A stretch of DNA of 57,570 bases from a bacterium (GTDB taxonomy: Bacteria > Patescibacteriota > Minisyncoccia > JAHIHE01 > DAOWLE01): the NCBI GenBank assembly GCA_030643545.1, contig DAOWLE010000022.1:1-57570 (forward strand), read 5' to 3'. Position numbers and translations under genes: made by a program. How positions within the stretch are numbered: the stretch's first letter is position 1; each line of letters opens with the position of its first letter. Of this stretch, positions 26,236 to 28,201 are shown piece by piece. The notes beneath the pieces were generated by a model. That model had not been told where the DNA came from. It made no database searches and saw only the letters and a list, made by a program, of their open reading frames with translations.

Positions 26236-26976
26236 ATGGATATTGTAGATGCATTAAGATTTGTTAAAAGAATTAGCGTAGGTCGATCTTGGATAGAAGA
26301 AAACAGAGGTAAATTATATCTTTTAGGGATAGACCCAAAAAATGTTCTTGCTTATAATATTAAAATAGACAGTGAATGTATTGAAAAAGAAACAAGCAAG
26401 AAAATTCATGGAAAATTAAATTTTTCTGGAGCAAATGTTTTTTGGGACAAGACGATTCCAAGAGAAAAAGCGTCATCAGTGATAATCAGACCGAAAGAAA
26501 TTATTATTATATGGAATAATAACGGATTGAAAGCAGAAAAAACAATTTATATAATGCCAGATAAACAACCCGGGATAAATAAAAAAAATATAGGGAAAAT
26601 AAAAAGGATGCTGCCTAAACCAGTAAAAACAACCATTGATATAAAGAAACTTAAAAAGATACTAAGATTTATAAATCAAAACTGGAAAGTAAGAATAGAA
26701 GGAAAAGAAAATATCTGCAACATTGTTTTCCAAGAAGTTTTCTCGCGCTGGGATTATATAGAAAATGACCGCATAGAAATAGAAAAAGATACGATAAAAC
26801 TAATATGTCAAACTGGCGATATAAACGGAAAAATTAGTATAAAATATACATATCTACAAAAAATAGCGCCGCTGTTATCGGATCCTTTGCGTTTAGCGAT
26901 AAAAACAGAGATGCCACTATACATAGCGACAAAAACAGGAGCAGAATTTTTAATAGCACCTCTTTATAACTTTTAA
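26236..26976 (+). CDS. PCNA-like sliding clamp protein
   Basis: The 246-residue length and block order match archaeal PCNA. Near the N-terminus, WIEENRGKLYLLGIDPKNVLAYNIKI (residues 19-44) corresponds to the PCNA stretch with the AMDPSRV motif; the last 44 residues (YLQKIAPLLSDPLRLAIKT, MPLYIATKTGAEFLIAPLYNF) match the C-terminal YLxxxxKA, MPLxLEY and FLLAPR blocks. The middle is divergent. It would form a ring on DNA or be a clamp-derived protein. The host also has dnaN. A strong SD, promoter and terminator make it a single-gene unit, next to the TFIIB-like gene. Assignment by eye; a fold search would decide. Confidence 0.65.
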   Translation: MDIVDALRFVKRISVGRSWIEENRGKLYLLGIDPKNVLAYNIKIDSECIEKETSKKIHGKLNFSGANVFWDKTIPREKASSVIIRPKEIIIIWNNNGLKAEKTIYIMPDKQPGINKKNIGKIKRMLPKPVKTTIDIKKLKKILRFINQNWKVRIEGKENICNIVFQEVFSRWDYIENDRIEIEKDTIKLICQTGDINGKISIKYTYLQKIAPLLSDPLRLAIKTEMPLYIATKTGAEFLIAPLYNF

Positions 26977-27031: not shown

Positions 27032-27145
27032 TTGACCCCGTTCCTAATTTCATAAGACGGTATAATACAAAAAAAGGGCCCAGAGCAACTTCGAATAGTT
27101 GGATTGTAACAGACGGTATTGCGAAATTAGGAAACGGGATTGACA
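27032..27145 (+). promoter_or_regulatory. Inverted-repeat promoter element, site C
   Basis: Arms CCCCGTTCCTAATTTC (27036-27051) and GAAATTAGGAAACGGG (27123-27138) pair with a single bulge. The inside is different from A and B: GGGCCC, CAACT/AGTTG and a repeated AGACGGTAT. The right arm runs into the -35 box. Confidence 0.75.
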
Positions 27146-27168
27146 AAATCTGCCTGTCTTGCTATAAA
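27140..27168 (+). promoter_or_regulatory. Promoter TTGACA-17-TATAAA of the TFIIB-like gene
   Basis: -35 TTGACA at 27140-27145, -10 TATAAA at 27163-27168. Confidence 0.8.
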
Positions 27169-27262
27169 TACAATATCTGACAATAATTTAATGATAGGTG
27201 ATTGTAATTTAGCACCTTGAAAATTAGAAGGAGGGAAAACAAAAAAGGGAGGTAAAAAAATA
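27169..27262 (+). promoter_or_regulatory. Leader shared with the PCNA-like gene, copy 2
   Basis: Same order as copy 1: ACAATATCTGACAATAATTTA, GGTG/CACC stem, CCTTGAAAATTAGAAGGAGG, then AAAGGGAGGTAAA before the ATG. Confidence 0.7.
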
Positions 27263-28201
27263 ATGGATAAAAAGAGAATGGGCAGAAAGACAACAGAAAA
27301 GACAGAAAGAGAATATCCCAGAAAATGTCTAGAATGCGGTTCTAAAAATATAGTAACTGGAAATGGAGAAACTTATTGCGCTGACTGCGGATTAGTAATA
27401 ATAGAGAACATTATAGATCTTGGTTCTGAATGGAGCGCGTATGATTCTGAACAAGCAACAAAAAGAATAAGAGTAGGCCCGCCGATGACTTATAGAATAA
27501 ATGATAAAGGATTAAAAGTTCCTATTGAGAAATTTTTAAAAGGAAAAGAAGGACATGCAGGAATAAATACAACAAAGGAACAAAGCTTTATTTTTGCGCT
27601 TTCTCAAATAGAACGAATGTCAAGCGCGCTTAGATTGCCAGAAAATATTAGAGAAGCCGCATCATTATTATACAGAAAAGCAATGCGTAAAAAGTTAATT
27701 AAGGGACGAAGCATAGAAGCCATAACTTCGGCAATTCTTTATATTGTTTGCAGACAATATGGAATACCTCGAACACTTGAAGAGATAAAACAAGTATCAT
27801 GGGAGAATAAAGAGAAAAAAATATATAAAGCTGTAAATCTTCTCTTACGAAAACTTGAACTAAAAATTCCGCCTGCTTCTCCTGTGGACTTTGTACCTCG
27901 CTTTTGTTCTCTACTTGAGTTAAATAAAGAAACAGAGTCAATAGCGTTAGAAATAGCAGGAAAAATAGAATTAAACAATAATGGACAATTACCAACAGGA
28001 GTGACAGCCGGAGCTATTTATATCGCGGCAGCATTAAATGATGATGAGTATCGCGCAAAAAAAGAAATAGCTGAAATCACAGGCGTATCTATTCCTACAA
28101 TCTTTGATAGATCCAAGGAAATATCAAAACAATTAGGCATAGATATGCCTGAAACTAAAAATAGAAAAAGAAGGACAAAAAACTCCTTCTCTTTTTTTTA
28201 A
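27263..28201 (+). CDS. Archaeal-type transcription factor B (TFIIB homologue)
   Basis: A full-length TFB of 312 residues. The zinc ribbon has Cys 22, 25, 39 and 42 (CLECGSK, YCADCGLV). Next come the B-reader/linker words LGSEWSAYD (53-61) and RVGPPMTYRINDKGL (70-84), which closely follow the archaeal TFB consensus. Two cyclin repeats follow: about 105-200 (ALSQIERM, LPENIREAASLLYRKA, GRSIEAITSAILYIVCR) and 205-292, with the helix-turn-helix KKEIAEITGVSIPTI that in archaea reads the BRE. In archaea and eukaryotes TFB recruits RNA polymerase to TATA promoters. Its job beside sigma factors in a bacterium is unknown. It has its own promoter, strong SD and terminator. Confidence 0.92.
   Translation: MDKKRMGRKTTEKTEREYPRKCLECGSKNIVTGNGETYCADCGLVIIENIIDLGSEWSAYDSEQATKRIRVGPPMTYRINDKGLKVPIEKFLKGKEGHAGINTTKEQSFIFALSQIERMSSALRLPENIREAASLLYRKAMRKKLIKGRSIEAITSAILYIVCRQYGIPRTLEEIKQVSWENKEKKIYKAVNLLLRKLELKIPPASPVDFVPRFCSLLELNKETESIALEIAGKIELNNNGQLPTGVTAGAIYIAAALNDDEYRAKKEIAEITGVSIPTIFDRSKEISKQLGIDMPETKNRKRRTKNSFSFF
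28168..28201 (+). terminator. Terminator inside the end of the TFIIB-like gene
   Basis: AGAAGGA and TCCTTCT pair around CAAAAAAC, followed by CTTTTTTTT. The hairpin codes the last residues (RTKNSFSFF) and includes the stop codon region. Confidence 0.8.

What the first reader, a model, noticed from the sequence alone, without database searches (positions are those of the whole stretch)
27263..28201. Complete archaeal TFB (TFIIB) homologue in a bacterial genome window
Seen: zinc ribbon Cys 22/25/39/42, the LGSEWSAYD and RVGPPMTYRINDKGL reader/linker words, and two cyclin repeats with the BRE-type helix-turn-helix; 312 residues, full length. Known: TFB recruits archaeal and eukaryotic RNA polymerases and is not part of normal bacterial initiation. 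Inference: either a captured archaeal gene used as a new regulator or an RNA-polymerase-binding factor from a mobile element. It has bacterial promoter, SD and terminator, so it is expressed by the host.
Basis: partly seen in the sequence, partly recalled or inferred. Interest (0 to 1): 0.95.

Follow-up and report, generated by a model that had tools for sequence, protein, structure and literature searches.

The report
Archaeal transcription factor TFB in bacteria
A tiny parasitic-type bacterium carries, next to its chromosome's replication origin, a complete copy of the archaeal transcription starter TFB taken from an ANME-1-type archaeon although it has no TBP partner protein, and two dozen related bacteria carry such genes too, which suggests a borrowed regulator or a protein aimed at archaeal hosts.

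Summary
ORF 27263-28201 (+) encodes a full-length TFB: a Cys4 zinc ribbon and two cyclin repeats (Pfam TFIIB E=3e-28), and its modelled core superposes on the Pyrococcus TFB-TBP-BRE complex at 1.7 Å. It is no contaminant. The gene lies 1.7 kb from parA-parB-murJ and 8 kb from dnaA-dnaN on a bacterial contig. The genome holds a second, ribbon-less copy beside trmD. Relatives sit at conserved slots in other Patescibacteria: thpR-murC in six genomes, and the dnaX...cysS-dnaB-recR block in about eight, one on a 661-kb contig. One order has 25/147 carriers, against 1/380 across the phylum. The tree places the window TFB among ANME-1 TFBs (61% identity) and another inside Nitrososphaerota; a single bacterial origin is rejected (AU p=7e-5). 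All seven carriers tested keep sigma70; none of 23 has TBP. dN/dS is 0.20-0.28. The window copy keeps the ribbon and the TBP-facing Gly-Arg but has lost both BRE-reading residues (V to P, R to F). The same class contains the known bacterial parasites of methanogenic archaea. My favoured but unproven reading is that these proteins act on the archaeal host's transcription (about 0.4). The main rival is an internal regulator (about 0.4). I found no report of bacterial TFB in the papers searched.

The parts
27140..27168 (+). sigma70-like promoter TTGACA-N17-TATAAA (11 of 12 matches)
   Evidence: suggestive only (6 such sites on the + strand of the window, 2.8 expected by chance)
27247..27252 (+). 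Shine-Dalgarno GGGAGG, 10 nt before the ATG
27263..28201 (+). TFB/TFIIB homologue, 312 aa
27326..27388 (+). Cys4 zinc ribbon (aa 22-42)
   Evidence: Pfam Zn_Ribbon_TF 6e-12; 4/4 Cys kept in 21/21 full-length bacterial TFBs
27416..27538 (+). reader/linker segment (aa 52-92)
   Evidence: alignment with ANME-1 TFBs; last part of linker divergent, low model confidence
27572..27859 (+). first cyclin repeat (aa 104-199), with KGR loop (aa 147-149) facing TBP in TFIIB complexes
   Evidence: Pfam TFIIB; AF2 model; TBP-contact assignment is own knowledge
27875..28162 (+). second cyclin repeat (aa 205-300)
   Evidence: second Pfam TFIIB stretch; AF2 model
28058..28135 (+). BRE-type helix-turn-helix (aa 266-291) with V->P278 and R->F281
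28169..28197 (+). intrinsic terminator overlapping the stop codon

Best explanation
Identity and origin (about 0.95): a real chromosomal TFB gene of a Paceibacteria/Minisyncoccia (Patescibacteria) bacterium, captured from the ANME-1 archaeal lineage, with bacterial expression signals and kept by selection. It belongs to a set of bacterial TFBs captured more than once from different archaea. Mechanism (inferred, about 0.4): the protein acts not on the bacterium's own sigma70 RNA polymerase but on the transcription machinery of an archaeal host or prey. It would be made in the bacterium, delivered to the attached archaeal cell, and compete with host TFB. The ribbon would dock on archaeal RNA polymerase and the first cyclin repeat on TBP. 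The window copy (ribbon kept, BRE-reading residues lost) would act as a decoy, or redirect polymerase to other promoters. The second copy on contig C18 (BRE helix kept, no ribbon) would occupy TBP-promoter complexes without recruiting polymerase. Shown: the gene, its context, phylogeny, selection among relatives, absence of TBP, and motif retention. Inferred: export, the host partner, and the competitive action.
For: The window TFB is inside the ANME-1 clade (96/99, and 100/100 in a second tree), with 55-61% identity to one ANME-1-type paralogue; other Halobacteriota drop to 49% or less. TBP is absent in 23/23 TFB-bearing bacterial genomes while sigma70 is present in 7/7 tested. Despite having no TBP, 19/21 full-length bacterial TFBs keep the invariant Gly-Arg of the TBP-facing loop, 18/21 the Arg equal to human R169, 21/21 all four ribbon Cys, and 14/21 the BRE Val/Arg pair; the best conserved keep 77-80 of about 84 archaeal invariants. 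Bacterial TFBs have several origins: one origin for all rejected, p-AU 7e-5; slot-A TFBs plus the Nitrososphaerota-like one, p 3e-4. dN/dS of 0.20-0.28 is like that of the adjacent housekeeping gene thpR. Carriers are concentrated in one order (25/147) against 5/384 in the class and 1/380 in the phylum; named members are Ca. Nealsonbacteria, from MAGs labelled CSMAG. Ca. Nealsonbacteria, Yanofskyibacteriaceae and Minisyncoccaceae of this class grow attached to methanogenic archaea, and host cells carrying the latter two show reduced activity (PMC10936435, PMC13293708). A T4SS-type VirB4/TraG ATPase is present in 11/12 carriers tested.
Against: No export signal is visible: the proteins begin almost directly with the ribbon. 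The T4SS ATPase is equally present in 6/6 genomes without TFB. No host is known for this bacterium, and an ANME-1 association is only inferred from gene origin. The gene lies beside housekeeping genes, not beside secretion genes. Interface conservation may partly reflect the fold rather than contact with TBP. Ribbon-less and decaying copies (L005, L100, L092) show that the gene is not always kept whole.
Confidence: 0.42

Rival explanations
1. Internal regulator: the captured TFB works inside the bacterium without TBP, either as a DNA-binding regulator through its cyclin/HTH core or as an accessory factor touching bacterial RNA polymerase through the ribbon and reader.
For: Long-term vertical keeping at conserved chromosomal slots (thpR-murC in six genomes; dnaX-GtrA-TFB-cysS-dnaB-recR in about eight); purifying selection; ribbon-less derivatives (L005, L100, L007, L096) that could only be DNA- or protein-binders; altered recognition helix in the window copy as expected for a new DNA target; base composition fully adjusted to the bacterium (GC3 21% against 46% in ANME-1 TFBs).
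Against: No TBP in any carrier, so the known way of placing TFB on DNA is missing. Archaeal-specific surfaces (ribbon, Gly-Arg loop) are kept in strongly diverged copies. The repeated capture from different archaea is unexplained.
Confidence: 0.4
2. Assembly chimera or archaeal contamination in the genome bin.
For: The genome is a 45-contig assembly with 2% estimated contamination. One 'bacterial' hit (L021, 'Desulfuromonadales') really is a mis-binned ANME-1 contig, near-identical to L020.
Against: TFB lies on a 57.6-kb contig with parA, parB, murJ, dnaA, dnaN and tmRNA. A second TFB in the same genome lies beside trmD, a KH protein and an RND pump. Same-slot relatives occur in independent assemblies on contigs of 135, 288, 330 and 661 kb. 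No TBP in the genome. The TFB's GC is that of the bacterium.
Confidence: 0.02
3. Recent, non-adaptive transfer in the course of decay, without function.
For: One relative is frame-broken (L092), one lacks its last residues (L015), and the window copy keeps only 58 of 83 archaeal invariants.
Against: dN/dS about 0.2-0.28 among bacteria; intact frames in about 20 lineages, some with tandem copies; conserved slots imply age; genomes of 0.5-1 Mb are under strong pressure to lose useless genes.
Confidence: 0.1
4. A gene of an archaeal virus or mobile element that entered the bacterium.
For: Archaeal viruses do carry TFBs (phrog_20431 E=7.5e-47; Halorubrum tailed virus 28%).
Against: Cellular ANME-1 TFBs are far closer (61%) than any viral one (24-28%); no relative in viral contigs; no phage or integrase neighbours recognised among the gene neighbours searched.
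Confidence: 0.06

Closest known systems
Archaeal TFB (cellular, ANME-1-type paralogue)
   Same: Zn ribbon, reader/linker words, two cyclin repeats, HTH; up to 61% identity over nearly full length; same fold at 1.7 A to Pyrococcus TFB core
   Different: Encoded in a bacterium without TBP; BRE-reading Val/Arg replaced by Pro/Phe; bacterial SD, promoter and base composition
Eukaryotic TFIIB (general factor of Pol II)
   Same: Same domain order; PDB E=1e-37; Foldseek to full-length TFIIB in PICs E~1e-14
   Different: About 32% identity; no eukaryotic-type partners in this cell
Archaeal-virus TFBs (phrog_20431, Halorubrum tailed virus, rod-shaped viruses)
   Same: TFB carried by a dependent genetic entity that must act on a host's transcription
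   Different: 24-28% identity only; here in a cellular bacterium, not a virus
Bacterial sigma70
   Same: Analogous step (promoter placement of RNA polymerase); separate sigma70 genes are present
   Different: No sequence match of this ORF to sigma domains

Membership tests
TFB/TFIIB protein family (sequence and fold) | N-terminal Cys4 zinc ribbon | tested here: met
   Pfam PF08271 E=6e-12, C22/C25/C39/C42
TFB/TFIIB protein family (sequence and fold) | two TFIIB-type cyclin repeats | tested here: met
   PF00382 E=2.9e-28, two stretches; AF2/Foldseek 1d3u rmsd 1.7
TFB/TFIIB protein family (sequence and fold) | branches inside the family with archaeal members | tested here: met
   inside ANME-1 TFB clade, 96/99 and 100/100
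Working archaeal-type general initiation factor (TBP/BRE-dependent TFB) | TBP partner in the same cell | tested here: not met
   PF00352 absent from the window genome and from 23/23 carriers; control archaea positive
Working archaeal-type general initiation factor (TBP/BRE-dependent TFB) | BRE-reading Val and Arg in recognition helix | tested here: not met
   P278/F281 in the window copy; V/R in 14/21 bacterial copies and in 54/56 archaeal rows
Working archaeal-type general initiation factor (TBP/BRE-dependent TFB) | Gly-Arg of the loop that faces TBP | tested here: met
   G148-R149 kept; 19/21 bacterial, 56/56 archaeal. Contact assignment is own knowledge
Working archaeal-type general initiation factor (TBP/BRE-dependent TFB) | recruits RNA polymerase to a promoter | not testable with these tools
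   needs in-vitro transcription
Secreted effector of an epibiont | export signal or shown transfer into the host | tested here: inconclusive
   no N-terminal signal seen by eye; T4SS-type ATPase present but not specific to carriers
Mobile-element gene | phage, plasmid or integrase surroundings or relatives | tested here: not met
   chromosomal neighbours; none in viral contigs; only distant archaeal-virus TFBs

The most novel reading that the evidence does not exclude
Ultra-small bacteria that live on archaea have repeatedly stolen the archaeal general transcription factor TFB and use altered or truncated versions of it to interfere with transcription inside their archaeal hosts: a cross-domain counterpart of host-transcription effectors.
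Probability: 0.38. Interest if true: 0.97.

Novelty: new variant of a known kind. Interest (0 to 1): 0.9.

Why it matters
TFB/TFIIB is regarded as a dividing mark between the archaeal/eukaryotic and the bacterial way of starting transcription. A bacterial lineage that acquired it more than once, keeps it under selection without TBP, and belongs to the bacterial class in which parasites of archaea are known opens two testable possibilities. One is that TFB can be wired into bacterial transcription. The other is that bacteria manipulate archaeal transcription from outside. It also gives a gene-based clue to which archaea (ANME-1, Nitrososphaerota) individual uncultured Patescibacteria live with.

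Tried and rejected
1) Genome-contig scan with the single protein found nothing; the alignment query found 27 loci. 2) Viral contigs: no relative. 3) T4SS ATPase as a discriminator: present in carriers and non-carriers alike. 4) L021 as a second bacterial phylum: rejected, a mis-binned ANME-1 contig near-identical to L020. 5) One origin of all bacterial TFBs: rejected by AU test. A single origin of the ANME-1-type group (window plus five) is not rejected (p=0.24), so I do not claim separate captures within it. 6) Position of very divergent slot-B copies (L086, L094, L085, L095) and ribbon-less copies (L005, L100) in the tree: not trusted, long branches. 7) Upstream neighbour 26236-26976 as a PCNA-like clamp: no sequence support, and the single-sequence fold failed. 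9) The literature library held nothing on TFIIB in Patescibacteria; subscription papers are mostly missing from it.

Full report
1. What is there. The ORF at 27263-28201 (+) is 312 codons, opens with ATG after an SD (GGGAGG, 27247-27252), and ends in a stem-loop plus T-run. A TTGACA-N17-TATAAA sequence lies 95 nt upstream; as a consensus match it is only suggestive. Pfam assigns TFIIB (2.9e-28, two repeats) and Zn_Ribbon_TF (6e-12). The closest solved structures are TFIIB and Pyrococcus TFB. An AlphaFold2 model from an alignment of 25 window and locus proteins is confident in nearly all of the cyclin core (pLDDT above 90) and weak in the linker. Foldseek places it on 1d3u chain B (TFB in the TFB/TBP/BRE-TATA complex) at 1.7 A over 198 columns, TMt 0.88, and on full-length TFIIB of pre-initiation complexes.

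2. It is on a bacterial chromosome. The contig carries tmRNA, several tRNAs, parA (29867), parB (30673), murJ (31593), dnaA (36029) and dnaN (37771); TFB is 1.7 kb from parA and 8 kb from dnaA. The genome is 845 kb in 45 contigs, 95% complete, 2% contaminated. It has a second TFB-family gene on contig C18 (6610-7221, 203 aa, both cyclin repeats, no ribbon) beside trmD, a KH-domain protein, an RND pump and a MurE-like ligase, named from their sequences. TBP is absent and sigma70 is present.

3. It is not alone. In the class, 5 of 384 genomes have a TFIIB-family gene; in an even draw over the phylum, only the window's own genome of 380. In the order of a Ca. Nealsonbacteria genome (G385 = L018), 25 of 147 do (23 above the family's cut-off), several with tandem or multiple copies and some with a third cyclin repeat. 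Named records are Ca. Nealsonbacteria CSMAG_2115 and CSMAG_2411, bacterium CSMAG_2101 and Patescibacteria UBA6532. Two chromosomal slots recur. Slot A is next to thpR and murC (L015, L017, L018, L082, L084 and the broken copy in L092). Slot B is between a GtrA-like gene plus dnaX on one side and cysS, a glycosyltransferase, dnaB and recR on the other (G395, G402 with two copies, G430 with two, G442, G450 on a 661-kb contig, G503; related arrangements in G419 and G422). The gene names in these slots were read from the sequences by eye, not by profile search. The nucleotidyltransferase beside the window's TFB also lies a few kb from TFB in L082 and L092, and the NUDIX gene in L092, so the window's locus is probably a rearranged slot A. 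Conserved slots in independent assemblies exclude chimeras and contamination.

4. Where it came from. In 295 genomes of the ANME-1 genome's phylum, the window TFB best matches one TFB paralogue at 55-61% identity, including in ANME-1 GoMg2 itself (G879, 59%); genomes outside this group drop to 49% or less. The donor-side genomes other than G879 are unnamed here; I call them ANME-1-type because their copies group with G879's. Two trees place the window and the slot-A TFBs among these sequences (96/99; 100/100) and the UBA6532 TFB inside Nitrososphaerota (100/100; 100/99). One origin of all bacterial TFBs is rejected (p-AU 6.7e-5), as is uniting slot A with the UBA6532 copy (2.6e-4). One origin of the window plus five slot-A copies is not rejected (p=0.24). 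The window gene has fully taken on bacterial composition (GC3 21% against 46% in ANME-1 TFBs), while most slot-A copies are intermediate.

5. It is under selection, with altered parts. Pairwise dN/dS of slot-A TFBs is 0.20-0.28, like the neighbouring thpR (0.21-0.42) and higher than in ANME-1 (about 0.1); comparisons with the window copy itself are near saturation. Of 84 columns nearly invariant in archaea, L082 keeps 80/83, L018 77/84, the UBA6532 copy 77/84, and the window 58/83. Among 21 full-length bacterial copies, all keep the four ribbon Cys, 19 the Gly-Arg of the TBP-facing loop, 18 the Arg equal to human R169, and 14 the Val/Arg pair that reads BRE. In the window copy that pair is Pro278/Phe281. 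Which residues touch TBP and BRE is taken from my knowledge of the TFIIB literature, not tested here.

6. How it may work. Shown: an intact TFB, of a kind under selection, in bacteria that have sigma70 (7/7 tested) and no TBP (23/23). Inference A (about 0.4): it acts on an archaeal host. Reasons: archaeal partner-binding features persist where the partner is missing; the genes were captured from different archaea; carriers cluster in the class whose members parasitise methanogens (Nealsonbacteria and Yanofskyibacteriaceae on Methanothrix, Minisyncoccaceae on Methanospirillum, with lowered host activity reported for the latter two; PMC10936435, PMC13293708). The window genome's two copies have complementary losses (ribbon without BRE reading; BRE helix without ribbon), as one would expect of decoys. 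Inference B (about 0.4): an internal regulator, favoured by stable chromosomal slots, ribbon-less derivatives and the changed recognition helix. The remainder is decay or viral origin. No export signal was recognised, and the T4SS ATPase is common to carriers and non-carriers, so the choice between A and B is open.

7. Known or new. As a protein it belongs to the TFB/TFIIB family by sequence, fold and tree. As a working archaeal-type initiation factor it fails two tested features (TBP in the cell, BRE residues). The library searched holds no report of TFB in Patescibacteria; that is not proof of novelty, since most subscription papers are not in it.

Noticed in passing
window 26236-26976 (+): 246-aa protein just upstream of TFB with no Pfam or PDB match; length and words such as 'LYLLGIDPKNVLAYNIKI' and a C-terminal 'EFLIAPLYNF' remind me of a PCNA-type sliding clamp. 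Only a reading by eye; single-sequence AF2 failed.
   Followed up: partly
G000 contig C18 (L005 6610-7221): Second TFB-family protein of the same genome: two cyclin repeats, canonical BRE helix, no zinc ribbon.
   Followed up: yes
L005 2971-6489: RND-type efflux protein with two inserted calcium-binding-repeat-like stretches (DDDQDGLPN..., DSDEDGLNLGEE...), unusual for the family.
   Followed up: no
L085 8121-10802 (G430), L089, L088: Bacterial TFBs of about 420-440 aa, apparently with a third cyclin repeat, in slot B; two in tandem in G430.
   Followed up: partly
L007 1584-2216 and L096 6744-7385: Ribbon-less cyclin-repeat proteins in two Paceibacteria genomes (beside infB-rbfA in G009, between mreC- and PBP2-like genes in G384) that may be an older bacterial derivative of TFB.
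   Followed up: partly
L021 (MAXT01000093.1): Contig filed under 'Desulfuromonadales bacterium C00003107' is an ANME-1 contig (near-identical to L020): a mis-binned record.
   Followed up: yes
L092 8788-9330 (G461): Slot-A TFB broken by an internal deletion or frameshift: the gene can be lost.
   Followed up: partly
L015 5644-8317 (G299) and syntenic loci: AMMECR1-, Memo- and radical-SAM-like genes sit beside the slot-A TFB in several Nealsonbacteria; this trio is also typical of archaea.
   Followed up: no
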